From assembly GCA_036389035.1 (NCBI GenBank), contig DASVQQ010000011.1, positions 62,001-126,000 of the forward strand: a DNA stretch of 64,000 nt. Direction: 5' to 3'. The stretch is from Jatrophihabitans sp. GTDB lineage: Bacteria; Actinomycetota; Actinomycetes; Mycobacteriales; Jatrophihabitantaceae. The position numbers were made by a program, and so were the translations under genes. The notes beneath the pieces are model-generated. The model had not been told where the DNA came from and did no database searches. It worked only from the letters and a program-made list of their open reading frames with translations. Below are positions 8,514 through 57,180 of the stretch, in pieces (within the stretch, counting starts at the first letter, position 1; each line of letters begins with the position of its first letter).

Positions 8514-8590
8514 GCCTGGCCGCCTGCCAGGTCGGTTCAGGCCTGGCCGCCTTCCAGGTCGGTTCAGGCCTGGCCGCCTTCCAGGTCGCC
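8514..8590. repeat. 27-bp tandem repeat duplicating the cobN stop codon
   Basis: Units at 8514-8540, 8541-8567 and 8568-8590 are nearly identical. Read on the minus strand, each encodes DLEGGQA or DLAGGQA and then TGA, so the last codons and stop of cobN are present three times in the same frame. Only the first stop met by cobN (8564) matters for the protein. Confidence 0.9.
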
Positions 8591-11500
8591 CTCGGTGTCG
8601 AGGTAGGCCTGCTGCAGGGCGGCCAGGGTGTCGGGGTCGGGGTGTTCCCACATCTGGCGCTGGGCGGCTTCCAGCAGCCGTTCGGCGATGCCGTGCAGCG
8701 CCCAGGGGTTGGACTCGGCGAAGAACTTCTGCAACTGAGGGTCCAGCACGTAGGTCTGGGCGAGCTTCTCATACATCCAGTCGGCGACCACTCCGGCGGT
8801 GGCGTCATAGCCGAACAGGTAGTCCACGGTGGCCGCCAGCTCGAAGGCGCCCTTGTAGCCGTGCCGCTGCATCGCGTCCAGCCAGCGCGGGTTGACCACC
8901 CGGGCCCGGAAGATCCTTGCCGTCTCCTCGGACAACGTCCGGGTGCGGACCGCGTCCGGGTTGGTGCTGTCACCGATGTAGGCAGCCGGCGCGGAGCCGG
9001 TCAGGGCCCGCACGGTGGCCACCATGCCGCCGTGGTACTGGAAGTAGTCATCGGAGTCGGCGATGTCGTGCTCGCGGCTGTCGACGTTCTTGGCCGCGAT
9101 GCTGATCCGGCGGTAGGCGTTCTCCATGTCCGGGCGCGCCTGGATGCCATCCACGCCGCGACCGTAGGCGAAGCCACCCCAGGCCGCGTAGACCTCGGCC
9201 AGGTCGGCGTCATCGCGCCAGTTCCTGCTTTCCAGCAAGGGCAATAGTCCGGCGCCGTAGGCCCCGGGCTTGGATCCGAACACCCGCAGCGTGGCCCGGC
9301 GCTGGTCCCCGTGGCTGGCCAGATCGGCCTGCGCGTGTGCCCGGATGAAGTTCATCTCGTGCGGCTCGTCCTGCTCGGCGACCAGTTGGACGGCGTCGTC
9401 CAGCAGCGCCACCACGTGCGGGAAGGCGTCGCGGAAGAAGCCGGAGATCCGGACGGTCACGTCGATCCGGGGCCGGTCGAGCTCGGCCAGGCTGATCAGT
9501 TCCAGGCCGGAGACCCGCCGCGACGCCTCGTCCCAGACCGGGCGCACCCCGAGCAGCGCCAGGATCTCGGCCACGTCGTCGCCTGCGGTGCGCATCGCCG
9601 AGGTCCCCCAGGCCGACAGCCCTACCGAGCGCGGCCAGTTCCCGGTGTCGGCGCGGTAGCGGGCCAGCAGCGACTCGGCCATCGCCTGGCCGGTCTCCCA
9701 GGCCAGCCGGCTCGGGATCGCCTTCGGGTCTACGGAGTAGAAGTTGCGTCCGGTGGGGAGCACATTGATCAGTCCACGCAACGGTGAACCGCTCGGACCG
9801 GCCGGCACGTAGCCGCCGTCCAGGGCGTGCAGCAGGTTGGTCAGCTCGTCAGTGGTGCGGGCCAGCCGGGGCGCCACCTCGGACGCGGCGAAGGCCAGCA
9901 CCTCGCTGACCAGCGTCACCCGGTCGTCGCCGGCGCCGAGGATCTCCGCTGTCGCCTCACCGGCGGCCTCGACCCGCCAGTCCCGCTCCTCCATCGCGGT
10001 CACCAGCCGGTGTGCCAGGCTCTCGGCCTCGTCGACGTCGGTTCGCGCCTCATCGCCCTGTTCTGACAGCCCCAACGCCTCGCGCAGCCCCGGCAACGCC
10101 GCGGCCTGCCCGCCCCAGACCTGCTTGGCGCGCAGCATCGCCAGCACCAGGTTGACCCGGGCCTCGCCCTGCGGCGCCTGACCCAGGATGTGCAGGCCGT
10201 CGCGGATCTGGACGTCCTTGATCTCGCACAGCCAGCCGTCGACGTGCAGGATGAACTCGTCGAACTCGGCATCGTGCGGCCGGTCGGCCAGGCCCAGGTC
10301 GTGATCGAGCTTGGCGGCCTGGATCAGCGTCCAGATCTGGGCGCGGATGGCCGGCAGCTTGGCCGGATCCATCGCCGCGATGCTGGCGTGCTCGTCGAGC
10401 AACTGTTCCAGCCTGGTGATGTCGCCGTAGCTCTCGGCCCGTGCCATCGGCGGAATCAGGTGATCGATCAGGGTCGCGTGCGCCCGGCGCTTGGCCTGGG
10501 TGCCCTCCCCCGGATCGTTCACCAGGAAGGGATAGATCAGCGGCAGCTCGCCGAGCGCGGCGTCGGTCGCGCAGGAGGCCGACATGCCGGCGCCCTTGCC
10601 GGGCAGCCATTCCAGGTTGCCGTGCTTGCCGACGTGCACGATGGCGTGCGCGCCGAACTCCTCGGCCAGCCAGCGATAGGCCGCGAAGTAGTGGTGGCTG
10701 GGCGGCAGGTCGGGATCGTGATAGATCGCCACCGGGTTCTCACCGAAGCCCCGGGGCGGTTGCACCATCACCACCACGTTGCCGGCACGCAATCCGGCGA
10801 GCACGATTTCGCCTTGCTGGTCCTTGCTGAAGTCGACGAACAGGTTGCCGGGAGCGGGGCCCCAGTGCTGCTCGATGCCCTGGCGAAGGTCGGCCGGCAG
10901 GTTGTCGTACCAAACCTGGTAGGCCGCGGCCGTGATGCGCACCGGGTTGTGCGCCAACTGCTCGGCGGTCAGCCAGTCCTGGTCCTGGCCGCCGGCCGCG
11001 ATCAGCGCGTGGATCAGCGCGTCACCGTCCAGCGCGCTCACGCCGGGCAAGGCGTCCGGGCCGTCGAGCGGGCCGATGTCATAGCCCTGCTCGCGCATCG
11101 CGGTCAGCAGCCGGACGACGCTGGCTGGGGTGTCCAGCCCGACCGCGTTGCCGATCCGGGAATGCTTGGTGGGATAAGCCGAAAGCATCACCGCGACCTT
11201 GCGCTCAGCCGGCGGGATGTGGCGCAGCCGGGCGTGCCGGACCGCGATCCCGGCGACCCGGTCGGCCCGCTCCGGATCGGCGACGTAAACCGTCAGCCCG
11301 TCGGCGTCGACCTCCTTGAACGAGAACGGCACCGTGATCAACCGGCCGTCGAACTCGGGGATCGCGACCTGGGTGGCGGCGTCCAGGGGCGACAGGCCGT
11401 CGCCGTTGGCCAGCCAGCTGTCCCGCGAGCTGGTCAGGCACAGCCCCTGCAGGATCGGGACGTCCAGCGCCGCCAACGCGCCGACGTCCCATGCCTCGTC

Positions 11501-12196
11501 ATCGCCGCCGGCCGAGGCGGTGGCCGGTTTCGTCCCACCGGCGGCCAGCACCGTCACGACCAGGGCGTCGGCGCCGGCCAGCGTGCTCAGCAGCTCCGGC
11601 TCGGCCGCGCGCAGCGAGGCGCAGAACACCGGCAGCGCGCGGCCGCCCTTGCCCTCGATGGCCTGGCACAGGGCGTGCACGAACGCGGTGTTGCCTGCGA
11701 CGTGGTGCGCGCGGTAGTAGAGGACGGCGACCGTGGGGGCGTCGCTGTTGGCCGGGGTTCGCTCCAGACCCTCCCGCTCCAACACCCCCCACATCGGGGT
11801 GCTGGCCGGCGGCTCGAAGCCGTGGCCGGTCAGCAGGACGGTGTCGGACAGGAACCGGTGCAGCTGACCCAGGTTGTGGGGGCCGCCCTCGGCCAGGTAA
11901 GAGTGCGCCTCGGCCGACACCCCGTAGGGCACGGTGGACAGCTTCATCAGGTCGGCGTCCGGTTGCTGCTCGCCGCCCAGCACCACCACCGGCCGGCCAC
12001 TGGCCAGCAGCGCGTCGATGCCGGCCTCCCACATGCGGTAACCGCCCAGGATGCGCACCACGGTCAGCTCCACGCCGGCCAGCAGCGCGGGCAGGTCCTC
12101 GACCTCGGTACGGGCCGGATTGGCCAGCCGGTAGTCGGCGCCGCTGGCTCGGGCGCTGAGCAGGTCGGTGTCCGAGGTCGAGAGCAGCAGGATCAC
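8564..12196 (-). CDS. cobN: Cobaltochelatase large subunit CobN
   Basis: The 1210-residue protein is the large, tetrapyrrole-binding subunit of the ATP-dependent cobalt chelatase, which inserts Co2+ into hydrogenobyrinate a,c-diamide in the aerobic B12 pathway. Length and the conserved blocks (VHVGKHGNLEWLPGKGAGMS, FGSKPGAYGAGLLPLLESR, PRIDVTVRISGFFRDAFP) match CobN/BchH. No CobS or CobT partner is in the window. I chose the GTG at 12196, preceded by GGGGAGGA. The longer frame from an ATG at 12322 is the translation of a cobalamin riboswitch and should be rejected. The gene is expected to be repressed by adenosylcobalamin. Its 3' end lies in a 27-bp tandem repeat. Confidence 0.95.
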   Translation of the reverse strand: MILLLSTSDTDLLSARASGADYRLANPARTEVEDLPALLAGVELTVVRILGGYRMWEAGIDALLASGRPVVVLGGEQQPDADLMKLSTVPYGVSAEAHSYLAEGGPHNLGQLHRFLSDTVLLTGHGFEPPASTPMWGVLEREGLERTPANSDAPTVAVLYYRAHHVAGNTAFVHALCQAIEGKGGRALPVFCASLRAAEPELLSTLAGADALVVTVLAAGGTKPATASAGGDDEAWDVGALAALDVPILQGLCLTSSRDSWLANGDGLSPLDAATQVAIPEFDGRLITVPFSFKEVDADGLTVYVADPERADRVAGIAVRHARLRHIPPAERKVAVMLSAYPTKHSRIGNAVGLDTPASVVRLLTAMREQGYDIGPLDGPDALPGVSALDGDALIHALIAAGGQDQDWLTAEQLAHNPVRITAAAYQVWYDNLPADLRQGIEQHWGPAPGNLFVDFSKDQQGEIVLAGLRAGNVVVMVQPPRGFGENPVAIYHDPDLPPSHHYFAAYRWLAEEFGAHAIVHVGKHGNLEWLPGKGAGMSASCATDAALGELPLIYPFLVNDPGEGTQAKRRAHATLIDHLIPPMARAESYGDITRLEQLLDEHASIAAMDPAKLPAIRAQIWTLIQAAKLDHDLGLADRPHDAEFDEFILHVDGWLCEIKDVQIRDGLHILGQAPQGEARVNLVLAMLRAKQVWGGQAAALPGLREALGLSEQGDEARTDVDEAESLAHRLVTAMEERDWRVEAAGEATAEILGAGDDRVTLVSEVLAFAASEVAPRLARTTDELTNLLHALDGGYVPAGPSGSPLRGLINVLPTGRNFYSVDPKAIPSRLAWETGQAMAESLLARYRADTGNWPRSVGLSAWGTSAMRTAGDDVAEILALLGVRPVWDEASRRVSGLELISLAELDRPRIDVTVRISGFFRDAFPHVVALLDDAVQLVAEQDEPHEMNFIRAHAQADLASHGDQRRATLRVFGSKPGAYGAGLLPLLESRNWRDDADLAEVYAAWGGFAYGRGVDGIQARPDMENAYRRISIAAKNVDSREHDIADSDDYFQYHGGMVATVRALTGSAPAAYIGDSTNPDAVRTRTLSEETARIFRARVVNPRWLDAMQRHGYKGAFELAATVDYLFGYDATAGVVADWMYEKLAQTYVLDPQLQKFFAESNPWALHGIAERLLEAAQRQMWEHPDPDTLAALQQAYLDTEGDLEGGQA

Positions 12197-12392: not shown

Positions 12393-13817
12393 TCACATCA
12401 CTTCGGGCACGATGCTGGGAACCCGGACGATGATCTCCAGCCGCTCGATGGCCTGCTGCGCCAGCGCGAGCGCCTCGGCCGCGGTGTCGGCGTGGGCGCG
12501 GGCCTGGGCCAGCCGCGAGTGCGAGCTCTGCAGGCCGTTGAGCTGGGTTCCGGGCGGAAGCGGCCACTTGACGGTGACACCGTCAGGGTGCGGTCCGTCG
12601 ACCCCGGCTATCTCCACCAGGATTCCGGATGGTGGGGCGACGGCGAACCAGATCGCCTCGCACCGGGGGGCCCGGTCGGGGTCGCGCAGCGTCTCACGGA
12701 TGCCGGGTAGCACCTTCTCGCCGATCATTTGGCGCCACTGGTTCTTGACCAGGTCGACGCCGGTGGCGTCGGTGACCAGGTCCCAGATGGAGTCGCCGCC
12801 GAAGCGCAGGTGGGTCTCGATGAGTCGCGGCCCGGACTCGGTCAGGACGATCTCGGTGTGGGTCGGGCCGAACTCGACACCGAGCGCGCCGAGCGCTCGG
12901 CACACGTGCGCGCCGACCGCCTCCTGCTGCTCCGGGTCCAGCGGAGCGGGCATCACATGCCCGAGTTCCACCAGGCTGACCGGATCGGAGTACTTGCGGG
13001 TGATGGTCACGACCTGGTGCTCGCCCTGCTCGGAGAAGCACTCCACGCTGTACTGGACGCCGGACAGGAACTTCTCGACTATCACCTGGATCGGGCTGTC
13101 GATGGCCTGGCTGTCGGTGGCCTGGCTGTCGGTGGCCTGGCTATCGGTGGCCTGGCTATCGGTGGCCTGGCTGTCGGTGGCCTGGCTGTCGGTGGCTGCG
13201 GTGCGATTGTCGATAGTCGGGGGCGGGGTGGTCATCACCACGGGTGTCGTTGTTCCCTGCTCGCGGCTGATCCCCTGGGCCCGGGCGAAGGCGGCCTCGG
13301 CCTGGGCCGGTTCTGAGATCACCGACACGCCTGCGCTGGCCATGCCGCTGGCCGGCTTCACCACACACGGATAGCCGTGCACGGCGGCGAAGTCCACCAA
13401 TTCCGCCACGTCGCGCACGGTGGCCGAGGCGGTGGACTCGACACCGGCCTCGGCCAGCCGTTGCCGCATGGCGTACTTGTCGTGGACCAGTCGGACCGTC
13501 TCAATCGAGTGGGCGGGCAGGCCCAGGGCTTGCCCGGCCGCTGCGGCGGCGACCTGTCCCTGGTCGCTGAAGCTGCCGATTCGGGTAACCGGTTGGAGTT
13601 CGTGGACCAGCCGGGCGAAGGCGACCCACTCATCCAGAGGGGCGTCGGCAGGCAGCACGACGATCCGAGCGAGCTTCTCGGGTTCATCGATCTTCACCAT
13701 CTGCTCCGGATCGCAGATCACGCTGGAGCTGACGCTGTGGCCCTCGTTCCTCGCCCAGGTGCGCAGCCGGTCGGGAATGTAATAGCCGTTGCCGAAGATC
13801 AACACATGCTCGGACAT
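12393..13817 (-). CDS. ATP-grasp domain ligase (L-amino-acid ligase-like) with a repeat insert
   Basis: The 474-residue protein resembles ATP-grasp carboxylate-amine ligases. It has an N-terminal pre-ATP-grasp domain (VLIFGNGYYIPDRL), the ATP-binding segment YPCVVKPASGMASAGV, VEKFLSGVQYSVECFS, and the C-terminal IETHLRFGGD. The usual metal-binding pattern there is E-x-N-P-R, so the Asn position is His here. A run of about six ATDSQ repeats is inserted in the loop just before the VIVEKFL strand, between residues about 207 and 241. The start ATG has AAGGA at good distance. It would join a carboxylate to an amine with ATP. The substrate is unknown, and the cobalamin genes around it do not explain it. 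Confidence 0.82.
   Translation of the reverse strand: MSEHVLIFGNGYYIPDRLRTWARNEGHSVSSSVICDPEQMVKIDEPEKLARIVVLPADAPLDEWVAFARLVHELQPVTRIGSFSDQGQVAAAAAGQALGLPAHSIETVRLVHDKYAMRQRLAEAGVESTASATVRDVAELVDFAAVHGYPCVVKPASGMASAGVSVISEPAQAEAAFARAQGISREQGTTTPVVMTTPPPTIDNRTAATDSQATDSQATDSQATDSQATDSQATDSQAIDSPIQVIVEKFLSGVQYSVECFSEQGEHQVVTITRKYSDPVSLVELGHVMPAPLDPEQQEAVGAHVCRALGALGVEFGPTHTEIVLTESGPRLIETHLRFGGDSIWDLVTDATGVDLVKNQWRQMIGEKVLPGIRETLRDPDRAPRCEAIWFAVAPPSGILVEIAGVDGPHPDGVTVKWPLPPGTQLNGLQSSHSRLAQARAHADTAAEALALAQQAIERLEIIVRVPSIVPEVM
13096..13195. repeat. 15-bp in-frame tandem repeat in the ATP-grasp gene
   Basis: Six full copies and one partial copy of CTGTCGGTGGCCTGG, differing at one or two bases, run from 13096 to 13195. 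On the coding strand each unit gives five residues (ATDSQ). The unit length keeps the frame. Confidence 0.95.
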
Positions 13818-14106: not shown

Positions 14107-15570
14107 GTGTTCACTACCGGTCACGACAAGTCCGCCACTCCGGCGGCTGACCGTGCCGATCCAGGCTGGAGCGAACAGCCGGTGTCCGCGGTATCGCCGG
14201 GTGTCGCGGTCTTGCCGTCCGTCGCCGTGTTGCCGTCCGTCGCGGTCTTGCCGCCGGCCGTCGCGGTCTTGCCGTCCGCTGCCGCGTTGCCTGCCGTTCA
14301 GTCGTCGCACGCCCCGTCCCTGCCTGTCGCAGAGCGACTGATCCAGTTGCTCGAGCTACCGCCGGCCGACCGTCCCACTGACGAGATCGCGCTGGTCGAC
14401 CTTCGAGGGCTGCCTGCCGGCGCCCGGATCGACCTGCTCACCCTGCTCGAGCAGCAGAAGCACTGGCTCGAGTCGGTGCAACAGCGGGTGCTCGCCGAGA
14501 TCGAGATCGCTGACGCCAGCGAACTCAACCTCTCGCAAGAGGCCGTCTCACTGGCCCTGGGAGTTCCGATCCGGACGGCGCAGACCAAGCTGAAGACAGC
14601 CAGCCTGCTCGTCCGAGAGTTGCCTGACACCTTGGCGCTGCTGCATGCCGGAAAGATCTCCTATCGGCATGCCGAGGTGATCTGCGAGCAGGCATGGTCG
14701 CTGCCTGTCCAACTGGTCGCCGAATTCGAGGCGCTGGCACTGGCTCGGGCAGCTGATCAGACCGTCGGCCAAGTGCGTCAGGCTGCTCGGCGAGCGGCGG
14801 TCCGGCTTGATCCGGCCAGCGCCGAGCAGCGTCATCAGCACGCCGTCACCGGTCGCAAGGTGGGCTTTCAACCCTGCGAGGACGGCATGGTGCTGCTGCC
14901 CGTCCTGCTGGACGCGCCGCAGGGACAGTTGATCTTCACCCGGCTCACCGCCGCCGCGACCCTGCTTCCCGCCGCCGATCATCGGACGATGGACCAGAAG
15001 CGTGCGGATCTGCTGGTCGACGCCGTGCTGTCCGGGCTGCCGCACGACGCGCTTCCCGAACTGCAGGGGCGTCGGCCGAGCATCCAGATTGTGGTGGCGG
15101 CCGACACCTTGCTTGGCCTGGACGACGAGCCGGCCGACCTGGCCGGGTATGGCCCGATCACTGCCGAGACCGCCCGCCGCTACGCCGCTGACCAATCGGG
15201 AACGTGGCGCCGGCTGCTCACCGATCCGGACACCGGCGCGTTGCTGGACATCGGCCGGGACAGCTACCGCCCGGCCCAGCGACTGCGTGACTTCGTGCTG
15301 GCCCGAGACAGCGTGTGCTGCTTTCCGACCTGCGGCCAGCCTGGTTACCGCTGCGAGTTCGAGCACATCGTCGCGTTCTCCGAGGGTGGGCAGACCTGCC
15401 GATGCGGCGGCGCGCTGGCATGCAAGCGGCATAACTTGTGCAAGATCGGAATGGGCTGGCAGTATCGTCGGCTGCCTGACGGCGGCTACCGGTGGACCGA
15501 CGACACCGGCCACGAGTACACCGGCCATCCACCGCAACGCTGGACGCCCAGGCGCCAACTCGCCGGATAG
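14107..15570 (+). CDS. DUF222 and HNH endonuclease domain protein
   Basis: The 487-residue protein has the DUF222 domain (about 80-330) followed by a C-terminal HNH nuclease (about 400-450). The HNH part has CCFPTCGQPGYRCEFEHI, then CRCGGALACKRHNLCK, giving zinc-binding cysteines and the catalytic His. This architecture is found in many copies in actinobacteria, partly linked to mobile elements, and its role is not established. The N-terminus carries five VAVLPS-like units of 18 bp. The GTG at 14107 appears leaderless. No transposase, integrase or other mobility gene lies nearby, so there is no direct sign of a mobile unit here. Confidence 0.88.
   Translation: MFTTGHDKSATPAADRADPGWSEQPVSAVSPGVAVLPSVAVLPSVAVLPPAVAVLPSAAALPAVQSSHAPSLPVAERLIQLLELPPADRPTDEIALVDLRGLPAGARIDLLTLLEQQKHWLESVQQRVLAEIEIADASELNLSQEAVSLALGVPIRTAQTKLKTASLLVRELPDTLALLHAGKISYRHAEVICEQAWSLPVQLVAEFEALALARAADQTVGQVRQAARRAAVRLDPASAEQRHQHAVTGRKVGFQPCEDGMVLLPVLLDAPQGQLIFTRLTAAATLLPAADHRTMDQKRADLLVDAVLSGLPHDALPELQGRRPSIQIVVAADTLLGLDDEPADLAGYGPITAETARRYAADQSGTWRRLLTDPDTGALLDIGRDSYRPAQRLRDFVLARDSVCCFPTCGQPGYRCEFEHIVAFSEGGQTCRCGGALACKRHNLCKIGMGWQYRRLPDGGYRWTDDTGHEYTGHPPQRWTPRRQLAG
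14203..14295. repeat. 18-bp in-frame tandem repeat at the N-terminus of the DUF222 gene
   Basis: Five units of GTCGCGGTCTTGCCGTCC or close variants, with one 3-bp insertion, encode VAVLPS-type hexapeptides. Confidence 0.9.
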
Positions 15571-15606: not shown

Positions 15607-15810
15607 CCTTGCTTGGATCTGGGTCACTTCCTGCCCGCTGGTTATGGGTCACCTTGCCCGCTGGTCATAGGTCGCCCTGACTACTGGGTCATGAGGCATC
15701 CCTGCCGCTGGGTCATGGGCCACCTGCCGCTGGGCCATCAGTCACCTTGCCGCTGGGTCATGGGCCACCTGCCACTGGGCCATCAGTCACCTTCCCGCTG
15801 GGGTCATCAG
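15607..15810. repeat. Degenerate 20-25 bp tandem repeat filling the gap before cobG
   Basis: Nine units built on CCTGCCGCTGGGTCATGGGCCA fill most of the 277-bp gap. The right part is a 45-bp higher-order unit present twice (about 15701-15744 and 15745-15789). A 69-codon frame through it encodes only the repeat (WVMGHLPLGHQSP) and is not credible as a gene. No other feature is visible in the gap apart from a -10-like site at 15835. Confidence 0.85.
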
Positions 15811-15847: not shown

Positions 15848-17287
15848 GTGCCACCACTGCCCGCTGCCCACCGCACCAGCCCACAGGACTCCTGCCCGGG
15901 CGCGCTGCGGATCCATCAGGCAGCCGACGGTGGCCTGGCGCGGGTGCGGATCCCCGGCGGGATCCTCACCGGCCCACAATGGCAGGCCTTGATCGCTGCC
16001 GCTGACGAGCTCGGCAACGGCCAGTTGGAGCTCACCTCGCGCGGCAACCTGCAGCTGCGGGGGCTGGGGATCGGCGATGAGGTGTCACTGGCCACTCGCC
16101 TGCAGAACGCCGGGCTGCTGCCCTCGCTGGCTCACGAGCGGGTGCGCAACCTGCTCGCCTCGCCGCTGACCGGCCGGGACGGTGTCGGCCAGATGGACGT
16201 CCGCCCGCTGATCGCCGAGTTCGATCGCGAGCTGTGCGCCCGCCCGGCGTTGGATGAGCTGTCCGGACGGTTCCTGTTTGCCCTGGACGACGGCCGCGGT
16301 GACGTCCTGGCCGCCGAGCCTGACATCGCCGTCACCGCCACCTCGCCGCACACGATGCGGTTGCTGCTGGCGGGCCAGCCGGTCGGGGCGCAGTGCCCCG
16401 GCGATGCCGCGGTCGAGCTGATGCTCGCGGCCGCGGAGGCCTTTCTGGTCGAACGCCGAGCCCAGGGCGGCACCGCCTGGCGGCTGGCCGAACTCACCGA
16501 GGGCCCCGGCCAGGTCGCGGCTCGGCTGGGGATCGCCGACGCAGCCGGTCCGACGCCCAGCCCCGCCCATGAACCCAGCCCGGCCCATGAATCCAGCCCC
16601 GGACCTGAGCCCGGCGCCGCACCCGTGCCAGGGCGACCGATCCGGCAGCGCGACGGTGCCAGCGCCCTGGTCATCGGTATACCGCTGGGCGGCTTGACCA
16701 CTGATCAGGCCAAGGTGTTTCTCCGGCCGCAGCTGATCCTGACCCCGTGGCGCAGCATCGTCCTGCCAGACCTGGACACCGATGACGTCACCGAACTTCT
16801 GGCCGCCTGCGCCGGGCTCGGGATGATCACCGACGAGTTCGACCCGCTGAGTGATGTCACGGCCTGCACCGGACGGCCGGGCTGCGCCTCGGCGCTTGCC
16901 GACGTCCGAGCCGACGCCATCACGACGCACCGGGCCCTCACAGCAGCCGGGGGGCGACCGGCCATCGGCGTGCACTGGTCCGGTTGCGCCCGCCGGTGCG
17001 GCCGGCCGGCGGACGCCGTGACCGACCTGATCGCTACCGGCTCGGGCTATCAGGTGAACTCTGGCGACCGCTCGGTCGGGGTCGGCAGCACTCCGGCTGA
17101 ACTGGCCACGGCACTGGCTGCGCTACCTGGGGCGGCTGCGCTACCTGGGGCGGCGCTATCTGGGGCGGCCGCGCTACCTGGGGCGGCGCTATCTGGGGCG
17201 GCCGCGCTACCTGGGCCGGTTGCTACTTCCGCTTTGACCGCCCAGTCGACGCCGGCCAACGACCCCGCCCTGGCAGGCGCCTCGTGA
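15848..17287 (+). CDS. cobG: Precorrin-3B synthase CobG
   Basis: CobG is the Fe-S, O2-dependent monooxygenase that makes precorrin-3B in the aerobic B12 pathway. The 479-residue protein shows the nitrite/sulfite-reductase-like repeat (LELTSRGNLQLRGL) and the [4Fe-4S] and sirohaem-type cysteines TACTGRPGC (about 337) and CARRCGRP (about 380). Two low-complexity inserts are present: an SPAHEPSPAHE-type linker (about 235-258) and a C-terminal LPGAALSGAA tail (about 424-457) encoded by a tandem repeat. The tail lies beyond the catalytic part. The stop overlaps the cobH GTG by 4 bp. CobG marks an oxygen-dependent route. Confidence 0.92.
   Translation: MPPLPAAHRTSPQDSCPGALRIHQAADGGLARVRIPGGILTGPQWQALIAAADELGNGQLELTSRGNLQLRGLGIGDEVSLATRLQNAGLLPSLAHERVRNLLASPLTGRDGVGQMDVRPLIAEFDRELCARPALDELSGRFLFALDDGRGDVLAAEPDIAVTATSPHTMRLLLAGQPVGAQCPGDAAVELMLAAAEAFLVERRAQGGTAWRLAELTEGPGQVAARLGIADAAGPTPSPAHEPSPAHESSPGPEPGAAPVPGRPIRQRDGASALVIGIPLGGLTTDQAKVFLRPQLILTPWRSIVLPDLDTDDVTELLAACAGLGMITDEFDPLSDVTACTGRPGCASALADVRADAITTHRALTAAGGRPAIGVHWSGCARRCGRPADAVTDLIATGSGYQVNSGDRSVGVGSTPAELATALAALPGAAALPGAALSGAAALPGAALSGAAALPGPVATSALTAQSTPANDPALAGAS
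17117..17218. repeat. 15/18-bp tandem repeat (33-bp higher order) in the cobG 3' end
   Basis: Six units alternate between GCTGCGCTACCTGGGGCG-like 18-mers and GCGCTATCTGGGGCG 15-mers, giving Ala/Leu/Pro/Gly-rich peptides in frame. Confidence 0.92.
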
Positions 17288-17919: not shown

Positions 17920-19619
17920 GCGAGCTGCCTGCGACCCCCGGCCCCACCGATTCGTCGACCGACCCCGCCACCGACCGGTCAGCCGACCCCGCCACCGACC
18001 GGTCGACCGGCCCCGCCACCGACCGGTCGGCCGACCTCGTCACCGACCAATCGACCGCCCCCGTCACACGCCGGTCGGCCGACCTCGTCACCGACCAATC
18101 GACCGCCCCCGTCACAGGCCGGCTCACCGGCGTCGGTCTGGGACCCGGCGATCCGGAGCTGGTCACGGTCAAAGCCGCCCGGTTGATCGGCGCCGCCGAC
18201 GTGATCGCCTTTCACAGCGCGCGGCACGGGCGCAGCATCGCCCGCTCGGTCGCTGAGCCCTACCTGCGGCCGGGCCAGATCGAGGAACCGCTGATCTATC
18301 CGGTCACCACCGAGACCACCGAGCACCCCGGCGGCTACGCCGGCGCGATGGATGACTTCTACACCGCCGCCACCGAGCGGCTGGCCGCCCACCTGGATGC
18401 CGGCCGCGACGTCGTCGTGATCGCCGAGGGCGACCCGATGTTCTTCGGCTCGTACATGCACCTGCACAAGCGGCTGGCGCACCGCTACCCGTGCGAGGTG
18501 GTGCCCGGAGTCACCTCGATCAGCGGAGCCTCCGCAGCGATGGGCCGGCCGCTGGTCGAGCACGAGGAGATCCTCACCGTGCTGCCGGGCACCCTGCCCG
18601 CCGAGGTGCTCGCCGAACGGCTGAACGGCACCGATCCGGCCGTGGTGATGAAGCTCGGACGCACCTTCGACAAGGTCCAGCAGGCCTTCGCCGCCGCCGG
18701 CCGGCTGGACGAGGCCTGGTACGTCGAGCGCGCCAGCACCAGCCAGCAGCGCATCCTGCCGCTGGCCGAGGTCGATCCGGCGAGCGTGCCCTACTTCTCG
18801 CTGGCGCTGCTGCCCAGCCGTGGCGGTGACGCCATCCCCGCCCCGCGCCCCGATGCTGCCCGCGCCCGGCAGCGCGGCGAGGTGGTGGTGGTCGGCCTGG
18901 GCCCGGCCGGCCGGGACTGGCTGACTCCCGAGGCGCAGGCCGAACTGGCCGCCGCCGACGAGCTGGTCGGCTACACCACCTACCTCAACCGGGTGCCGGT
19001 CAACCCGCGCCAGCGCCGGCACGCCTCGGACAACCAGGTGGAGTCCGAACGGGCCGCCTTCGCCCTGGACTTGGCCAAGCGCGGCGCCCGGGTGGTGGTG
19101 GTGTCCTCCGGTGACCCCGGCGTGTTCGCGATGGCCAGTGCCGTGCTGGAGATGGCCGACGACGAGCAGTGGCGTGACGTCGACGTCCGGATCTGCCCCG
19201 GCCTGACCGCGGCGCAGGCGGTCGCCAGCCGGGTCGGAGCGCCGCTCGGGCACGACTTCTGCGTGCTGTCGCTGTCGGACCGGCTCAAGCCCTGGGAGGT
19301 GATCGCCGAGCGGCTGGCGGCCGTCGCCCGCGCGGACCTGGTGCTGGCGATCTACAACCCGGCGTCGAAGTCGCGCACCTGGCAGGTCGAGAAGGCCCGC
19401 AACCTGCTGCTGGAGCACCGGTCCCCCGACACCCCGGTGGTGATCGGGCGTGACGTCGGCGGGCCGGCCGAGACGGTTCGGGTGCTGCGGTTGGCAGAGC
19501 TCGACCCCGAGCAGATCGACATGCGCTGCCTGCTGATCATCGGCTCGTCCCAGACCCGGCTGCGCTACCGGACGGATGGTCGACCCACCGTCTACACCCC
19601 CCGCCACTACCCCGGCTGA
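17916..19619 (+). CDS. cobIJ: Fused precorrin-2 C20- and precorrin-3B C17-methyltransferase CobIJ
   Basis: This bifunctional SAM-dependent methylase of 567 residues joins CobI (about 69-310, LTGVGLGPGDPELVTVKAAR) to CobJ (about 321-567, VVVVGLGPAGRDWLTPEA). CobI adds the C-20 methyl and CobJ the C-17 methyl with ring contraction. The CobI-CobJ fusion is common in actinobacteria. The first 68 residues are a hydrophilic tail made of seven 8-residue repeats (ATDRSADP type) with no counterpart in the family as I know it. No start codon lies between the tail and the CobI domain, so the tail is translated if the GTG at 17916 (overlapping the cobH stop) is used. Confidence 0.93.
   Translation: MSELPATPGPTDSSTDPATDRSADPATDRSTGPATDRSADLVTDQSTAPVTRRSADLVTDQSTAPVTGRLTGVGLGPGDPELVTVKAARLIGAADVIAFHSARHGRSIARSVAEPYLRPGQIEEPLIYPVTTETTEHPGGYAGAMDDFYTAATERLAAHLDAGRDVVVIAEGDPMFFGSYMHLHKRLAHRYPCEVVPGVTSISGASAAMGRPLVEHEEILTVLPGTLPAEVLAERLNGTDPAVVMKLGRTFDKVQQAFAAAGRLDEAWYVERASTSQQRILPLAEVDPASVPYFSLALLPSRGGDAIPAPRPDAARARQRGEVVVVGLGPAGRDWLTPEAQAELAAADELVGYTTYLNRVPVNPRQRRHASDNQVESERAAFALDLAKRGARVVVVSSGDPGVFAMASAVLEMADDEQWRDVDVRICPGLTAAQAVASRVGAPLGHDFCVLSLSDRLKPWEVIAERLAAVARADLVLAIYNPASKSRTWQVEKARNLLLEHRSPDTPVVIGRDVGGPAETVRVLRLAELDPEQIDMRCLLIIGSSQTRLRYRTDGRPTVYTPRHYPG
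17955..18122. repeat. 24-bp in-frame tandem repeat at the 5' end of cobIJ
   Basis: Seven consecutive 24-mers of the type TCGACCGACCCCGCCACCG-ACCGG. The last four form a 48-bp pair that is almost exact. All keep the reading frame. Confidence 0.95.
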
Positions 19620-20470
19620 GCCGAGCCTGCCACCAGCGCGGTGACCCAGTCCCGGGCTGCCGGCACCGTCGGCACCGCGGCGATGTCGGGCAGCGGCGGC
19701 CGCTGGATCATCAACACCGGCAACCCGAGTTCACGCGCCGCGACCAACTTCGCCTCGGTCAGCGGTCCACCACTGTCCTTGGTCACCAGCACCTGGATCC
19801 GGTGCTCGCGCATCAGCGCGATCTCCTGCGTCACGCTGAACGGCCCGCGCGCCAGCAACAGCTGATGCCGGCTCGGCAGAGGCGGCCGCGGCGCCTCGAT
19901 GCTGCGGATCAGGAACCAGTGCCGGTCCAGCGCGGCAAACGGCGCCAACCCGGTCCGGCCGGTGGTCAGAAACACCCGCTCGGCCGAATCGTCACGCGCC
20001 CGGCCGTCCAGCGCCAAGTCGTCCCGCGCCCGGCCGTCCAGCGCCGAACCGTCCCGCGCCGAACCGTCCCGCGCCGAACCGTCCCGCGCCAAGTCGTCCA
20101 GCGCTCGGGCCGCGGCCTCCGGCGACGGCTGCCGGCGCCAGTCATCGCCCGGACGCTCGGTCCAGCCCGGCCGGCGCAGCGCCAGGATCGGCACCCCGGC
20201 CGCAGCCGCCGCCTGGACCGCGGACCAGCTGATGGTCGCGGCGAACGGATGAGTGGCATCGACCACGGCCGCGATCCGCTCGGCGACCAGCCAGCCGGTC
20301 AGCCCGGCAGCCCCGCCGAAACCACCGATCCGCACCTCACCGGCCGGCAACGCCGGCTCGGCCACCCGGCCGGCCAGCGACGAGATCGGTCGTACCCCGG
20401 GCACACCGGCCAGGGCCGTGGCAAGCGCCCTGGCTTCGGCCGTTCCACCCAGGATCAGCACCCGCGCCAC
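19607..20470 (-). CDS. cobK: Precorrin-6A reductase CobK
   Basis: CobK reduces precorrin-6A with NADPH. The product (287 residues from the GTG at 20470) has VLILGGTAEARALA, the conserved VVDATHPFAATIS and VTKDSGG segments. The GTG at 20470 follows GAGGTGA at ideal distance; a GTG 9 bp upstream is also possible. A run of eight 15-bp units inserts ARDGS-type residues in a loop after about residue 125, so the protein is longer than typical CobK (about 245-250). It runs convergent to cobIJ and their last 13 bp overlap, so both genes end without an intergenic terminator. Confidence 0.93.
   Translation of the reverse strand: MARVLILGGTAEARALATALAGVPGVRPISSLAGRVAEPALPAGEVRIGGFGGAAGLTGWLVAERIAAVVDATHPFAATISWSAVQAAAAAGVPILALRRPGWTERPGDDWRRQPSPEAAARALDDLARDGSARDGSARDGSALDGRARDDLALDGRARDDSAERVFLTTGRTGLAPFAALDRHWFLIRSIEAPRPPLPSRHQLLLARGPFSVTQEIALMREHRIQVLVTKDSGGPLTEAKLVAARELGLPVLMIQRPPLPDIAAVPTVPAARDWVTALVAGSAQPG
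19986..20105. repeat. 15-bp in-frame tandem repeat in cobK
   Basis: Eight 15-mers (GAACCGTCCCGCGCC and variants CGGCCGTCCAGCGCC, AAGTCGTCCCGCGCC) run without gaps. They encode RARDG/ARDGS-type pentapeptides on the minus strand. Three adjacent units are identical. Confidence 0.96.
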
Positions 20471-23206: not shown

Positions 23207-23267
23207 GCGCCGCGTCCTAAAATGGCAGCGCATCGTCTGCCCTGAGACATGCGAAGGAGCGCCAGCC

Positions 23268-23875: not shown

Positions 23876-23891
23876 CACGCAATCTGCCTTT

Positions 23892-23955
23892 GGCTGTTTG
23901 GCTGTTCGGCTGTTCGGCCGTTCGGCCGTTCGGCCGTTCGGCTGTTCGGCTGTTT
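23892..23955. repeat. 8-bp tandem repeat between convergent genes
   Basis: Eight copies of GGCTGTTC/GGCCGTTC/GGCTGTTT follow each other exactly between the DUF1697 and PPOX-type genes. The unit is not a multiple of three, in contrast to repeats inside genes. Confidence 0.95.
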
Positions 23956-24002
23956 GGCGTTCAGCCTTTGCCGTTCAGCCTTTTGCCGCTTGGTGTTGTC
24001 GT

Positions 24003-24947: not shown

Positions 24948-25787
24948 ATGCCCACTGCCGTGATCACCGGAGCGTCTGCCGGTCTCGGACGAGCACTGGC
25001 CGCCGGCCTGGCCCGACGAGGCTGGAACCTTGTCATTGACGCCCGTGGTCCCGATCGGCTGTTCCAGCTGGCCGATGAGCTGAGCGGGTCCTGCCAGCTG
25101 CGCGCGGTCGCCGGCGACGTCAGCGACGATGAACACCGCCGCCGGCTGGCCGAGGCCGCCGCCGAATTCGGCTCGCTGGACCTGCTGGTGAACAACGCCA
25201 GCACCCTGGGCCCGACCCCGCTGCCACCGCTCGCCGATCTGGCGCCGGACCGCCTCACCGAAATCCTGCAGGTGAACGTGGTGGCGCCACTGGCCCTGAT
25301 CCAGCTCAGCCTGCCGGCGCTCACGGCAGCCGGCGGCGCGGTGGTCAACCTCTCCTCCGACGCCGCAGTGGCGCACTACCCCGGATGGGGCGGATACGGC
25401 AGCGCCAAAGCAGCCCTGGACCATCTGAGCGCCACCTTGGCCGCGGAGAACCCGCAGCTTCGCTGGTACAGCTTCGACCCGGGCGACATGCGCACCGAGA
25501 TGCACCAGGCCGCCTTCCCCGGCGAGGACATCAGCGACCGGCCGACGCCCGAGTCGGTGCTGCCCGCGTTGCTGCGGCTGATCGACACCCGCCCGCCCAG
25601 CGGTCGCTACACCAGCGCCGATCCGGAGCTAGCCGCCGGATCAGCTGACGCCACCCAACCAGCCGACGCCACCCGACCAGCCGACGCCACCCAACCAGCC
25701 GAAGCCGCCCGACCGACTGAACCCATCGCACTAGCCGAAGCCGCCGAGCCTGCGTTGGCCGACTTCGCCGAAGGAGCCTCACGATGA
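24948..25787 (+). CDS. Short-chain dehydrogenase/reductase (SDR), probable SoxR target
   Basis: The core (about 1-230) is a classical SDR with the NAD(P) motif TGASAGLG at the N-terminus, LLVNNAS, and the catalytic Ser then YGSAK (Tyr-x-x-x-Lys). The substrate is unknown. A C-terminal extension of about 45 residues is mostly four 18-bp units (ADATQP/ADATRP) and Ala-rich sequence, outside the Rossmann fold. GGAGGAG precedes the ATG. The stop overlaps the start of the QueA-like gene as ATGA. Confidence 0.9.
   Translation: MPTAVITGASAGLGRALAAGLARRGWNLVIDARGPDRLFQLADELSGSCQLRAVAGDVSDDEHRRRLAEAAAEFGSLDLLVNNASTLGPTPLPPLADLAPDRLTEILQVNVVAPLALIQLSLPALTAAGGAVVNLSSDAAVAHYPGWGGYGSAKAALDHLSATLAAENPQLRWYSFDPGDMRTEMHQAAFPGEDISDRPTPESVLPALLRLIDTRPPSGRYTSADPELAAGSADATQPADATRPADATQPAEAARPTEPIALAEAAEPALADFAEGASR
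25644..25715. repeat. 18-bp in-frame tandem repeat at the 3' end of the SDR gene
   Basis: Four 18-mers of GCCGACGCCACCCAACCA type encode ADATQP, ADATRP, ADATQP and AEAARP. Confidence 0.93.
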
Positions 25788-27031: not shown

Positions 27032-27055
27032 GCGCCCGCACTACCGTTGCCAGGC

Positions 27056-34181: not shown

Positions 34182-34217
34182 GGCAGCGGCGCATCCCACG
34201 CGCGCTAGGTTGGGCTC

Positions 34218-39542: not shown

Positions 39543-39621
39543 CCGAGCGAAGCCAGGACCCATGACCGAGCGAAGCCAGGACCTATGACCGAGCGAAGCC
39601 GGGACCCATGACCGAGCGAAG
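39530..39621 (+). repeat. Four 23-bp tandem repeats forming a chain of ATGA-coupled mini-ORFs before the sigma gene
   Basis: Units at 39530, 39553, 39576 and 39599 are CCAGGACCCATGACCGAGCG-AAG with one change in copy 3. Each has an ATG (39539, 39562, 39585, 39608). The first three give 8-residue ORFs (MTERSQDP, MTERSQDL, MTERSRDP), each ending in a TGA that overlaps the next ATG. The RsbW-like stop overlaps the first ATG and the last ATG starts the sigma gene. Confidence 0.95.
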
Positions 39622-40381
39622 CCGGCCGGATCGCGATCGCACCCATCAGCTGTTCGCCGAACTGGGCACGCTGCAGCCGGGCAGCCCGCGGCGACAGCAG
39701 GTGCGCAACGCGCTGGTCGAGATTCACCTGCCGCTGGTGCGCTATCTGGCCCACCGGTTCACCGGTCGGGGTGAGCCGGTCGATGACCTGCTGCAGATCG
39801 GCACCATCGGCCTGCTGCAGTCGATCGACCGGTTCGAGCAGGAGCGCGGGCTGGAGTTCTCGACCTTCGCCACCCCCAGCATCGTCGGGGAGATCAAGCG
39901 GCATTTCCGCGATCGCGGCTGGATGGTCCGGGTGCCGCGCCGGCTGCAAGAATTGCAGGCCGAGATCGGCGTCGGCATCAACGACCTGACCCATCGCCTG
40001 GGTAGGGCGCCGACGGTGGCCGAACTGGCCGGGCACCTGCGGTTGAGCCCGGAGCAGGTCATCGAGGCCACCGACTCGGCTCGGGCGTACTCGGCGGTGC
40101 CGATCGACGTGCCCAGCGCCACGACCGGCCGGACCATCGCCGACGGCCTGGTGGAGCCGGACACCGCTCTGGAGCATGTGGAACTGCGGCACGCGCTGCG
40201 CCCGGTGCTGGCCGGGCTCACCGAGCGGGAGCGGCAGGCGTTGCTGCTGCGCTTCGTGGAGAACAAGACCCAGAGTGAGATCGCCCAGGTGCTCGGGGTC
40301 TCGCAGGTGCACGTCTCGCGGTTGCTGGCCAAGACCCTCGCCGCCCTGCGCGACCGGCTGCCCGACCTGCACCACCGCTGA
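39608..40381 (+). CDS. SigF/SigB-type RNA polymerase sigma factor
   Basis: The 257-residue sigma-70 family member has region 2 (DDLLQIGTIGLLQSIDRFEQ and the FSTFATPSIVGEIKRHFRD block), region 3 and region 4 (LTERERQALLLRFVENKTQSEIAQVLGVSQVHVSRLL). This fits the SigB/SigF/SigG group used for stress and development. The RsbW-like protein just upstream is its probable antagonist. The start ATG is the fourth copy of a 23-bp repeat and has no good ribosome binding site of its own, so translation probably depends on upstream coupling. Confidence 0.92.
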   Translation: MTERSRPDRDRTHQLFAELGTLQPGSPRRQQVRNALVEIHLPLVRYLAHRFTGRGEPVDDLLQIGTIGLLQSIDRFEQERGLEFSTFATPSIVGEIKRHFRDRGWMVRVPRRLQELQAEIGVGINDLTHRLGRAPTVAELAGHLRLSPEQVIEATDSARAYSAVPIDVPSATTGRTIADGLVEPDTALEHVELRHALRPVLAGLTERERQALLLRFVENKTQSEIAQVLGVSQVHVSRLLAKTLAALRDRLPDLHHR

Positions 40382-48610: not shown

Positions 48611-48704
48611 CGGATGGGCTTCCGCTCACTCCGGATGGGCTTCCGCTCACTTCGGATGGGCTTCCGCTCACTTCGGATGGGCTTGCGCCACTCCGGATGG
48701 CAGG
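48611..48704. repeat. 21-bp tandem repeat in a divergent promoter region
   Basis: Units of CGGATGGGCTTCCGCTCACT plus one base at 48611, 48632 and 48653 are nearly identical; a fourth and a partial fifth follow. They lie between the leftward S4 gene and the rightward deacylase gene, ending just before the deacylase ATG. Confidence 0.95.
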
Positions 48705-49193: not shown

Positions 49194-50994
49194 GATCCTC
49201 CTCGCGGTACTCCCCGGCCGCCCGCTGCTGGCCGCGGCCGTCCTCCGCGCGGCGCAGGTCCACCCGGCGGATCTTGCCGCTGATCGTCTTGGGCAGCTCG
49301 GCGAACTCCAGCCGGCGGATCCGCTTGTACGGCGCCAGCTGCTCCCGGCAGAACACCAGGATCTGCCCGGCCAGCTCGGCCGAGGGCGAGTAGCCCGCCG
49401 CCAGCGTGACGTAGGCCTTGGGCACCGACAGCCGGACCGGGTCAGGTGCGGGCACCACGGCCGCCTCGGCCACCGCCGGATGCGTGACCAGCACGCTCTC
49501 CAACTCGAACGGGCTGATCCGGTAGTCGCTGGACTTGAACACGTCATCGGTTCGCCCGACGTAGGTGACGTAGCCGTCGGAATCGATCGTGGCGACATCG
49601 CCGGTGTGGTAGAGCCCGTGCGCCATCGCGGTGTCATTTCGCTCGGCGTCGTCCCGATAACCCACCATCAACCCCACCGGACGCTCGGCCAGGTCCAGGC
49701 AGATCTCACCCTCAGCTGGAGCTGCCACTTCGGTCCGCTCGTCGCTCGTTCCTCGCTGCGATGCTCCCTCAGCTGGAGCTGCCACTTCGGTCCGCTCCTC
49801 GCTCGTTCCTCGCTGCGATGCTCCCTCAGCTTGCAGCCGCTGGCCGGTGACCGGGTCGGCCAGCACCACCCGGTAGCCGGGCAGCGGCCGGCCCATCGAT
49901 CCCGGCTTGACCAGCTCGCCGGGCGGGTTGCCGATCTGGGCGGTGGTCTCGGTCTGGCCGAAGCCGTCCCTGATGGTCAGCGACCAGGCGCGTTGAACCC
50001 GCTCGATCACCTCGGAGTTCAACGGCTCGCCGGCGCCCACGACCTCGCGCAGCGACAGCTGCCACCTGCTCAGGTCCTGCTGCACCAGCATCCGCCACAC
50101 CGTCGGCGGCGCGCAGAAGGTGCTCACGCCGGCCTCGGCCAGCACGTCCAGCAGCCGGGCGGCATCGAAGCGGGCGTAGTTGAACAGCACCACGGTGGCC
50201 CCGGCGTTCCACGGCGCGAAGAAGCAGGACCAGGCGTGCTTGGCCCAGCCCGGCGACGAGACGTTGAGGTGGACGTCGCCGGGGCGCAGCCCGATCCAGT
50301 ACATCGTCGACAGGTGCCCGACCGGATAGCTGAGATGGGTGTGCTCCACAAGCTTGGGCTGGGCGGTGGTCCCCGAGGTGAAGTAGAGCAACAGCGGGTC
50401 CGTCCCGACCGTCGGCACGTCAGGCTGGTACGGCTGGTCGAAGCCGGCCGCCTCGGCGTAGTCCAGCCACCCGGGGACCGGCTCGCCCGCCGCCACCGCG
50501 ACGCAGCCGGCCGGAGCCGAGCCGAAACCGGCCGTCAGATCCGAGCGGCTGATGACCGCTCCGACAGCGCCACGCTCCAGCCGGTCGGCCAGGTCGGCCG
50601 GTGACAGCAGCGTGCTGGCCGGGATGATCACCGCGCCCAGCTTCATGCAGGCCAGCATCGACTCCCACAGCTCGACCTGGTTGCCCAGCACCAGCAGCAC
50701 CCGCATGCCGCGGCTGACCCCGTTCGCGGCCAGCCAGCCGGCGAGCCGCGACGAGCTCCGCGACAGCTGCCCGAAGGTGTAGCCGGCCCGGCTGCCGTCG
50801 TCCTCGATCAAGCGCAACGCGTCCTGGTCGGGCCGCTGGGTGGCCAGCACCCCGTCGAAGTAGTCCAAGGCCCAGTTGAACCGCTCCGGTCGAGGCCAGC
50901 TGAACTGCCGGTAGGCGGTGGCGTAGTCCCCGCGGGCGTTCAACAGCAGGTCGCGGGCGGCGAGGAATTCGTCGATGCCGGCTGTGTCGTTCAT
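49183..50994 (-). CDS. AMP-binding acyl-CoA synthetase with a 57-bp duplication
   Basis: The 603-residue protein is an adenylate-forming ligase: LLYFTSGTTAQPKLVEHTH (A3), the DGFGQTETT (A5), YHTGDVATIDSDGYVTYVGRTDD (A7/A8) and the catalytic Lys in LPKTISGKIRRVDLR (A10). It activates a medium-chain or aryl acid as acyl-AMP and transfers it to CoA; the acid is unknown. Between A5 and A7 is a duplicated 19-residue block with EGASQRGTS(E/D)ERTEVAAPA. I chose the ATG at 50994 (MNDTAGIDEF). Confidence 0.9.
   Translation of the reverse strand: MNDTAGIDEFLAARDLLLNARGDYATAYRQFSWPRPERFNWALDYFDGVLATQRPDQDALRLIEDDGSRAGYTFGQLSRSSSRLAGWLAANGVSRGMRVLLVLGNQVELWESMLACMKLGAVIIPASTLLSPADLADRLERGAVGAVISRSDLTAGFGSAPAGCVAVAAGEPVPGWLDYAEAAGFDQPYQPDVPTVGTDPLLLYFTSGTTAQPKLVEHTHLSYPVGHLSTMYWIGLRPGDVHLNVSSPGWAKHAWSCFFAPWNAGATVVLFNYARFDAARLLDVLAEAGVSTFCAPPTVWRMLVQQDLSRWQLSLREVVGAGEPLNSEVIERVQRAWSLTIRDGFGQTETTAQIGNPPGELVKPGSMGRPLPGYRVVLADPVTGQRLQAEGASQRGTSEERTEVAAPAEGASQRGTSDERTEVAAPAEGEICLDLAERPVGLMVGYRDDAERNDTAMAHGLYHTGDVATIDSDGYVTYVGRTDDVFKSSDYRISPFELESVLVTHPAVAEAAVVPAPDPVRLSVPKAYVTLAAGYSPSAELAGQILVFCREQLAPYKRIRRLEFAELPKTISGKIRRVDLRRAEDGRGQQRAAGEYREEDLSS
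49711..49824. repeat. 57-bp direct duplication in the acyl-CoA synthetase gene
   Basis: 49711-49767 and 49768-49824 differ by a single base. The unit is a multiple of three and adds 19 residues in frame. It contains the inverted stretch TCGCTCGTTCCTCGCTGCGA, so the unit may come from elsewhere. Confidence 0.95.
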
Positions 50995-57101: not shown

Positions 57102-57128
57102 GCGGCTCGCCCCGTCAGCCGCCGGCGG

Positions 57129-57180
57129 CAAGATCCGTCCGTACACCGAACAAGATCCGTCCGCACACCGAACAAGATCG
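57129..57180. repeat. 22-bp tandem repeat after rsgA
   Basis: Units of CAAGATCCGTCCGTACACCGAA at 57129 and 57151, with a third partial copy to 57180, fill about half of the 117-bp gap before the next gene. Confidence 0.9.

What the first reader, a model, noticed from the sequence alone, without database searches (positions are those of the whole stretch)
8514..57180. Short tandem repeats in many conserved genes and gene junctions; units inside genes are multiples of three
I count more than fifteen short arrays. In-gene units are 15 bp (ATP-grasp, cobK), 18 bp (DUF222, SDR, otsB), 24 bp (cobIJ), 33 bp (cobG, QueA-like) and 57 bp (acyl-CoA synthetase). Gap units are 8, 19/22, 21, 22 and 23 bp, with a 27-bp unit crossing the cobN stop. 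Several neighbours are identical copies, which suggests recent duplication. Selection would remove frame-breaking arrays in genes, leaving the pattern seen. The inserts lie in loops or at ends of enzymes. I know of no description of this density in cobalamin biosynthesis genes. It could be neutral slippage, loss of a repair step, or a store of length variation.
Basis: partly seen in the sequence, partly recalled or inferred. Interest (0 to 1): 0.8.

Follow-up and report, generated by a model that had tools for sequence, protein, structure and literature searches.

The report
Young minisatellites across an actinobacterial genome
In this actinobacterium short stretches of DNA keep being copied head to tail, in and between ordinary genes, and inside genes almost only the copies that keep the protein readable are found; this kind of repeat is known, but it seems to arise faster than usual in this small group of species.

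Summary
The arrays are real: TRF gives 20 in 64 kb (score >=80, unit 12-120 bp) against 1 in 640 kb of Markov simulations. They are not special to cobalamin genes: 480 kb elsewhere in the same genome has 16.7 per 100 kb and sister species G002 17.8, versus 8.6 in 80 actinobacterial loci and 5.0 in a single-contig genome of the same genus; the window is not clearly denser than its genome (p=0.057). The multiple-of-three rule holds: 54 of 55 genic arrays in 544 kb against 20 of 46 outside or at gene edges; other actinobacteria show it too (76 of 78 genic). Against the collinear sister (88% identity) 46 of 70 anchored arrays are longer in their bearer; 21 of these 46 have a unit-like copy at the sister's site. 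All 12 rows anchorable in a more distant congener are longer than it. Tandem-linked length changes: 3.65 per 10 kb against 1.31 in five control pairs. Best reading: local tandem duplication, probably slippage, filtered by selection on reading frame, with raised supply in this clade. Six repair families searched give no cause. A known kind, unusually active.

The parts
8506..8588 (-). 27-bp unit x3.1 across the cobN stop codon (last 8 codons and downstream)
   Evidence: TRF score 145; residues 1245-1252 plus stop; net +16 bp against G002
13094..13196 (-). 15-bp unit x6.9 in an ATP-grasp ligase gene, peptide (ATDSQ)n
   Evidence: +78 bp against G002; a stretch identical to the unit lies at the G002 site
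14187..14296 (+). 18/21/39-bp array in the N-terminal part of a DUF222 protein
   Evidence: G002 interval 137 bp shorter
15635..15807 (.). 23/45-bp array between the DUF222 gene and the cobG-like gene
   Evidence: +136 bp against G002
17116..17219 (+). 33-bp array near the C-terminus of the cobG-like gene
   Evidence: +120 bp against G002
17954..18122 (+). 24/48-bp array in the N-terminal extension of cobIJ
   Evidence: +153 bp against both G002 and G001
19983..20104 (-). 15/30-bp array in cobK, residues 126-166
   Evidence: query residues 129-165 lie between residues 124 and 127 of solved precorrin-6A reductase 4x7g; same length but different unit in G002, +90 bp against G001
23892..23988 (.). 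8-bp array (9 copies) plus 14-bp array in a gene junction
   Evidence: no anchor pair in G002
25631..25714 (+). 18/36-bp array near the C-terminus of an SDR gene
   Evidence: no anchor pair in G002
25898..26033 (+). 33-bp array in a QueA-like gene, residues 39-84
   Evidence: the Pfam match starts at residue 100; placement against 1vky rests on a left anchor of 0.0 bits; no anchor pair in G002
27044..27207 (+). 18-bp unit x9.1 at the start of the otsB-like gene, with in-frame ATGs at 27056 and 27092
   Evidence: one copy holding an ATG in the G002 alignment
30309..30433 (+). 21-bp array in the kgd-type 2-oxoglutarate dehydrogenase gene, between its N-terminal and acyltransferase domains
   Evidence: +129 bp against G002
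30562..30695 (+). 15/27-bp Ala-Pro-Lys array in the same linker
   Evidence: +39 bp against G002
34081..34182 (.). 19/22-bp array after the kgd-type gene
   Evidence: +23 bp against G002, which has a 20-bp array there
39530..39623 (+). 23-bp unit x4.1 holding an AGGA box and the start codon of a sigma-factor gene
   Evidence: one copy in G002; three upstream 8-codon reading frames
48611..48700 (.). 21-bp unit x4.3 at the start of, or just upstream of, an aminoacyl-tRNA editing-domain gene
   Evidence: +70 bp against G002
49709..49831 (-). 57-bp unit x2.2 between the AMP-binding and AMP-binding_C domains of an acyl-CoA synthetase
   Evidence: net +45 bp against G002, which holds one copy in the alignment
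57129..57179 (.). 22-bp unit x2.3 downstream of an RsgA-type gene
   Evidence: no anchor pair in G002

Best explanation
These are young minisatellites. A local segment of about 12-60 bp is duplicated head to tail, most likely by slipped-strand copying, and the array then grows and is re-homogenised by further rounds, sometimes of two-unit blocks. Purifying selection removes arrays whose unit breaks a reading frame, so genes keep units such as 15, 18, 21, 24, 33 and 57 bp at termini, between domains or in loops, while gaps keep any length. The supply of new duplications is raised in this clade (G000, G002, and less so G001) relative to other members of the genus. Shown: lineage specificity, length gain against a more distant congener at the few testable places, the frame filter, the raised density and the raised tandem-linked length change. 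Inferred: slippage as the copying step, and a mutational rather than selective cause of the excess.
For: Collinear sister G002: of 27 window arrays (score >=50) 20 could be anchored; 13 are longer in the window, 4 equal, 3 shorter; G002 has its own arrays elsewhere. Native copies at the sister site are plain for the otsB-like gene and the sigma factor; 21 of 46 lineage-specific arrays have a unit-like copy at the sister site at p<=0.05, about 2.3 expected. All 12 rows (seven places by my count) that could be anchored in G001 are longer than G001. In 544 kb no exact 16-mer occurs at more than 5 separate places, so units are local, not a mobile element. Frame: genic 54:1 multiples of three, edge plus intergenic 20:26, Fisher p=1.2e-10. 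Supply: tandem-linked length events 60 in 164 kb aligned versus 14 in 107 kb over five control pairs, 50% versus 20% of length events. Genic and non-genic densities are both raised over the 80 loci, 2.1-fold and 2.5-fold (12.1 vs 5.9; 52.4 vs 20.6 per 100 kb), as expected of a raised supply.
Against: 25 of 46 lineage-specific arrays have no recognisable unit at the sister site, and 24 of 70 anchored arrays show no length gain. Only 6 simple one-unit duplications could be read among 81 pure indels (0.58 expected), with extra matched runs of 0 to 14 bases, too few to show slippage between short repeats. Adjacent copies are only slightly more alike than distant ones (0.84 vs 0.81, p=0.07, 18 of 29 arrays). 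The 60 events come from 52 arrays by my count of the list. Net length changes do not separate genes from gaps (24 of 33 versus 10 of 15 multiples of three, p=0.74). The control pair of like divergence (G048/G057, 89% identity) has 1.40 tandem events per 10 kb, a ratio of 2.6, on 21 kb only. Low densities in G003, G006 and G007 come from small samples of fragmented assemblies, which may lose repeats; G004 (5.0 per 100 kb, one contig) is the only clean contrast in the genus. G034 (18.3 per 100 kb in 60 kb) and 11 of 80 other loci are as dense. In the 80 loci 40 of 65 non-genic arrays are also multiples of three, which suggests that my gene calls miss some coding stretches.
Confidence: 0.75

Rival explanations
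1. The arrays are selected: copy number tunes expression or protein properties (a store of length variation, as in phase-variable VNTRs).
For: Two arrays repeat a start region: the sigma-factor array repeats box plus ATG with three coupled 8-codon frames, and the otsB-like array carries two ATGs. Promoter tandem repeats vary in copy number in M. tuberculosis (PMC12817950, abstract and passages).
Against: Many arrays sit at different places in the sister species, share no dispersed unit, and genic ones keep frame so they cannot switch genes. The genic hosts named here are mostly metabolic enzymes. None of this tests copy-number effects directly.
Confidence: 0.1
2. Loss of a DNA repair function in this clade causes the excess.
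For: The excess covers genes and gaps alike and differs within the genus, which is what a mutator would give.
Against: NucS is present (57 of 61 genomes, 45 of 45 near-complete ones), as are 5' nuclease domains, Ku and Y-polymerases (17 of 17 each) and, over the curated cut-off in G000, G001 and G002, SbcD (12 of 17 over cut-off, 14 of 17 at E<=0.001; G008, an 85% complete assembly near this clade by CobN identity, has only a weak match). MutS is absent from all 17. Point defects and untested genes remain open.
Confidence: 0.2
3. No special rate: ordinary actinobacterial background seen in a window chosen because it is rich.
For: 11 of 80 cobIJ loci are as dense as this genome; 26 Streptosporangiaceae loci (my grouping by title) average 14.3 per 100 kb. 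The window exceeds its own genome only at p=0.057.
Against: 480 kb outside the window still has 16.7 per 100 kb against 8.6 (p=0.0002), and its 24 slices of 20 kb rank above the 73 loci of 20 kb or more (p=0.00014).
Confidence: 0.2
4. Assembly artefact.
For: G000 is a 40-contig draft.
Against: Copies within arrays mostly differ from one another, genic arrays keep frame, and a separate assembly (G002) shows arrays of the same kind.
Confidence: 0.02

Closest known systems
Bacterial minisatellites / VNTR loci (for example mycobacterial VNTRs; PMC12817950, abstract and passages)
   Same: Local head-to-tail units of tens of bases in genes and gaps; an in-frame bias of structural variants in genes (17 of 25 in pe/ppe genes there); copies of promoter or start regions
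   Different: Copy-number polymorphism within the species is not shown here; here the arrays differ between sister species. That paper ascribes the in-frame bias to mechanism rather than selection; here the contrast of genes and gaps speaks for selection
Prokaryotic 'satellites' of Subirana and Messeguer 2019 (PMC6749651, part 1 of 5 and passages)
   Same: Units of 10-200 nt; the authors note that long-repeat units are mostly multiples of three and probably coding
   Different: They list 4.20 per Mb in Streptomyces coelicolor and at most 23.0 per Mb for a bacterial replicon in Table 1; with TRF and 3.9 or more copies I get 83 per Mb here outside the window, but also 41 per Mb in 80 actinobacterial loci, so the two methods are not comparable in level
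Small variable segments by short-homology illegitimate recombination (PMC2884548, passages)
   Same: Short length changes ascribed to replication slippage between repeats under 30 bp
   Different: Studied within species; here between species, with arrays in core enzymes
Ala-Pro rich linkers of kgd-type dehydrogenases (recalled)
   Same: The second kgd array is of this type
   Different: Most other genic arrays of the window are not in such linkers

Membership tests
Minisatellite | Tandem head-to-tail units of about 10-100 bp | tested here: met
Minisatellite | More than chance for the base composition | tested here: met
   20 in 64 kb versus 1 in 640 kb of order-2 simulations
VNTR | Copy number differs between isolates of one species | not testable with these tools
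   No second isolate of the species; lengths differ between sister species
Frame-filtered coding repeats | Genic units multiples of three, non-genic units not so restricted | tested here: met
   54:1 versus 20:26; gene calls are GC3-based, not curated
Slippage products | Ancestral single unit flanked by short direct repeats | tested here: inconclusive
   Unit-like copy seen in 21 of 46; end matches readable in only 6 cases
Dispersed mobile repeat | Same unit at several unlinked loci | tested here: not met
   No exact 16-mer at more than 5 separate places in 544 kb; diverged copies not tested
Repair-deficient mutator | Loss of a relevant repair gene in the dense clade only | tested here: not met
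   Six families searched; none is lost in G000, G001 and G002 only; other genes and point defects not tested

The most novel reading that the evidence does not exclude
One clade inside an actinobacterial genus carries a heritable 'minisatellite mutator' state: new 12-60 bp tandem duplications arise two to four times faster than in close relatives, genome-wide, without loss of any repair gene tested, and roughly half or more of the in-frame ones are tolerated even in core metabolic enzymes, so that proteins gain repeat loops as a routine evolutionary step.
Probability: 0.35. Interest if true: 0.6.

Novelty: new member of a known kind. Interest (0 to 1): 0.4.

Why it matters
A sister pair at 88% identity with dozens of lineage-specific arrays (46 in about 190 kb) is a usable natural experiment on how minisatellites start and how much repeat insertion enzymes tolerate. 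If non-genic arrays (52.4 per 100 kb) reflect supply, a frame filter alone predicts about 17.5 genic arrays per 100 kb (one third), or 22.8 if the non-genic share of multiples of three (20 of 46) is used; 12.1 are seen (my arithmetic), so half to two thirds of in-frame arrays seem to survive. The contrast within one genus could lead to what sets the rate.

Tried and rejected
Dispersed element: part of the 57-bp acyl-CoA synthetase unit looked like a widespread actinobacterial motif from memory; the 16-mer count over 544 kb of this genome showed no dispersed element. Special role of cobalamin genes: in 80 cobIJ loci the two bins 0-2 kb upstream of the cobIJ match are among the highest (17.9 and 16.3 per 100 kb, like a bin 8-9 kb away at 17.0), but cobIJ itself is at 6.2-6.3; 10 of 80 loci have an array in or within about 150 bp of it, with unrelated units; most match ends were taken as a fixed length. 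Truncated polA: the open frame in G000 is only 745 aa, but the match starts about 2.1 kb from the contig end (C8 is 230973 bases long), so the frame is cut by the contig end. Homogenisation by neighbour exchange: weak. Outgroup polarity: only 12 of 83 rows could be anchored in G001; that G001 is an outgroup rests on CobN identity (82% against 94% for G002), and a loss in G001 cannot be told from a gain. In the net-length test 24 of 33 in-gene tandem changes were multiples of three and intergenic ones did not differ (10 of 15, p=0.74); net lengths mix several changes, and unit length (31 of 33 genic against 13 of 27 others) is the cleaner measure. Rows without anchors were dropped: 13 of 83, 7 of 27 window arrays and 1 of 24 G002 arrays. 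Papers: I read part 1 of 5 and passages of PMC6749651, passages of PMC12817950 and of PMC2884548; the rest only as search listings. In these nine searches the listings showed no description of such arrays in actinobacterial cobalamin genes; one search listed 12 of 67 papers, and most subscription papers are not held.
Full report
Check of the observation. With score >=80 and unit 12-120 bp there are 20 arrays in 64 kb; ten order-2 Markov simulations of the window together gave 1. The window lies at G000:C11:62001-126000 of a 4.5-Mb, 40-contig genome. The organism is an actinobacterium, judged by the named relatives of its CobIJ; its name was not established.

Is it special to this window or to cobalamin genes? 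Not clearly. In 480 kb sampled elsewhere in the same genome the density is 16.7 per 100 kb against 31.2 in the window (p=0.057). Along 80 actinobacterial cobIJ loci the two bins just upstream of cobIJ are high (17.9 and 16.3 per 100 kb), cobIJ itself is not (6.2-6.3); 10 of 80 carry an array in or beside it, near the N-terminus, in the middle or near the C-terminus, with unrelated units.

Is the genome unusual? Moderately. Per 100 kb: G000 outside the window 16.7, G002 17.8, G001 11.1; in the same genus G004 (one contig) 5.0, G003 2.9, G006 3.4, G007 1.8 (fragmented, small samples); other family or order members 1.2 to 18.3; 80 actinobacterial loci 8.6. With at least 88% match between copies: G000 10.4, G002 13.6, G001 7.9, G004 3.1, 80 loci 4.0. 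G000, G002 and G001 together against the rest of the genus sample, p=7e-9; against G004 alone, p=8e-5. G005 and G008 were not sampled for density. GC does not explain it: the 29 loci with GC 0.68-0.72 average 7.9. But 11 of 80 loci are as dense, and 26 Streptosporangiaceae loci average 14.3, so this is the upper range, not a class of its own.

Frame rule. In 544 kb of G000, arrays wholly inside called genes have units that are multiples of three in 54 of 55 cases, against 20 of 46 at gene edges and between genes (p=1.2e-10). The 80 loci give 76 of 78 and 40 of 65; G002 gives 12 of 14 and 9 of 22. Gene calls rest on GC at third positions, so some arrays may be misfiled; the 40 of 65 suggests so. 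Subirana and Messeguer already reported multiples of three for prokaryotic satellites with long repeats (PMC6749651). Density outside genes, edges included, is 52.4 per 100 kb and inside 12.1; in the 80 loci 20.6 and 5.9. Both classes are raised, 2.5-fold and 2.1-fold, which I read as a raised supply rather than relaxed selection on proteins.

Age and origin. G002 is collinear with the window (pieces at 80-91% identity; 88% over 164 kb aligned). Of 20 anchored window arrays 13 are longer in the window, 4 equal and 3 shorter; of 23 anchored G002 arrays in the same stretch 10 are longer in G002, 4 equal, 9 shorter. Over the 190-kb pair, 46 of 70 anchored arrays are longer by at least 0.8 unit in the genome that bears them, and 21 of the 46 have a unit-like copy at the sister site at p<=0.05, about 2.3 expected; 25 do not. 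The clean cases are the otsB-like gene and the sigma factor, where G002 has one native copy. All 12 rows that could be anchored in G001 (seven places by my count, two genomes) are longer than G001, by 12 to 342 bp; this fits gains, though losses in G001 are not excluded. In cobK both species have 122 bp, 90 bp more than G001, but with different units, as if an old array had been re-homogenised in each line.

Rate. Length differences of 9 bp or more with an array (TRF score >=40) on the longer side number 60 in 164 kb aligned (3.65 per 10 kb, 50% of 120 events) against 14 in 107 kb (1.31 per 10 kb, 20% of 70 events) over five control pairs at 76-89% identity. Four control pairs are more diverged; G048/G057 (89%, 1.40 per 10 kb on 21 kb) is about equally so. 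The 60 events come from 52 arrays by my count of the list.

Where in the proteins. The cobIJ, otsB-like and DUF222 arrays are N-terminal; the cobG-like, SDR and cobN arrays C-terminal; the ATP-grasp array lies between two domain matches, touching the second; the acyl-CoA synthetase and kgd arrays lie between domains. The CobK insert lies between the residues aligned to 124 and 127 of the solved enzyme 4x7g. In the QueA-like protein the array lies ahead of the Pfam match; its placement against 1vky is weak. The peptides are short polar or Ala-rich repeats such as ATDSQ.

Mechanism. Local units with no dispersed exact copies, native copies at part of the sister sites, and higher-order blocks in 8 of 29 arrays fit slipped-strand duplication. 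The direct signature, short repeats at the ends of the ancestral unit, could be read in only 6 cases and is inconclusive. Loss of FEN1-type nuclease, which in yeast gives such duplications (recalled), is not seen: 5' nuclease domains are present in all 17 genomes searched; so are Ku and Y-polymerases; NucS is present in G000, G001 and G002; SbcD is over the cut-off in those three; MutS is absent from all 17. The cause of the raised rate is therefore open.

Verdict. A real, well-marked case of a known kind: fresh minisatellites filtered by reading frame, with a clade-level excess that deserves a whole-genome test.

Noticed in passing
window 39530-39623: Four 23-bp copies repeat an AGGA box and the start codon of a sigma-factor gene; copies 1-3 open 8-codon frames (MTERSQDP, MTERSQDL, MTERSRDP) whose TGA overlaps the next ATG. 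Sister G002 has one copy.
   Followed up: partly
window 27044-27207: The otsB-like N-terminal array repeats the start region; in-frame ATGs at 27056 and 27092, so the start site is uncertain.
   Followed up: partly
window 23213-23999 and about 24571-26890: About 0.66 and 2.2 kb more in the window than at the collinear place in G002; the second stretch holds the SDR gene and most of the QueA-like gene with their arrays, while the end of the QueA-like gene is present in G002.
   Followed up: no
L011, L022, L025, L048: Winogradskya humida, Planomonospora, Planotetraspora mira and Nonomuraea sp. PA05 loci have 8 to 11 arrays in about 21 kb each, denser than the window.
   Followed up: no
G000:C8 end (L235): The contig appears to end inside polA.
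   Followed up: partly
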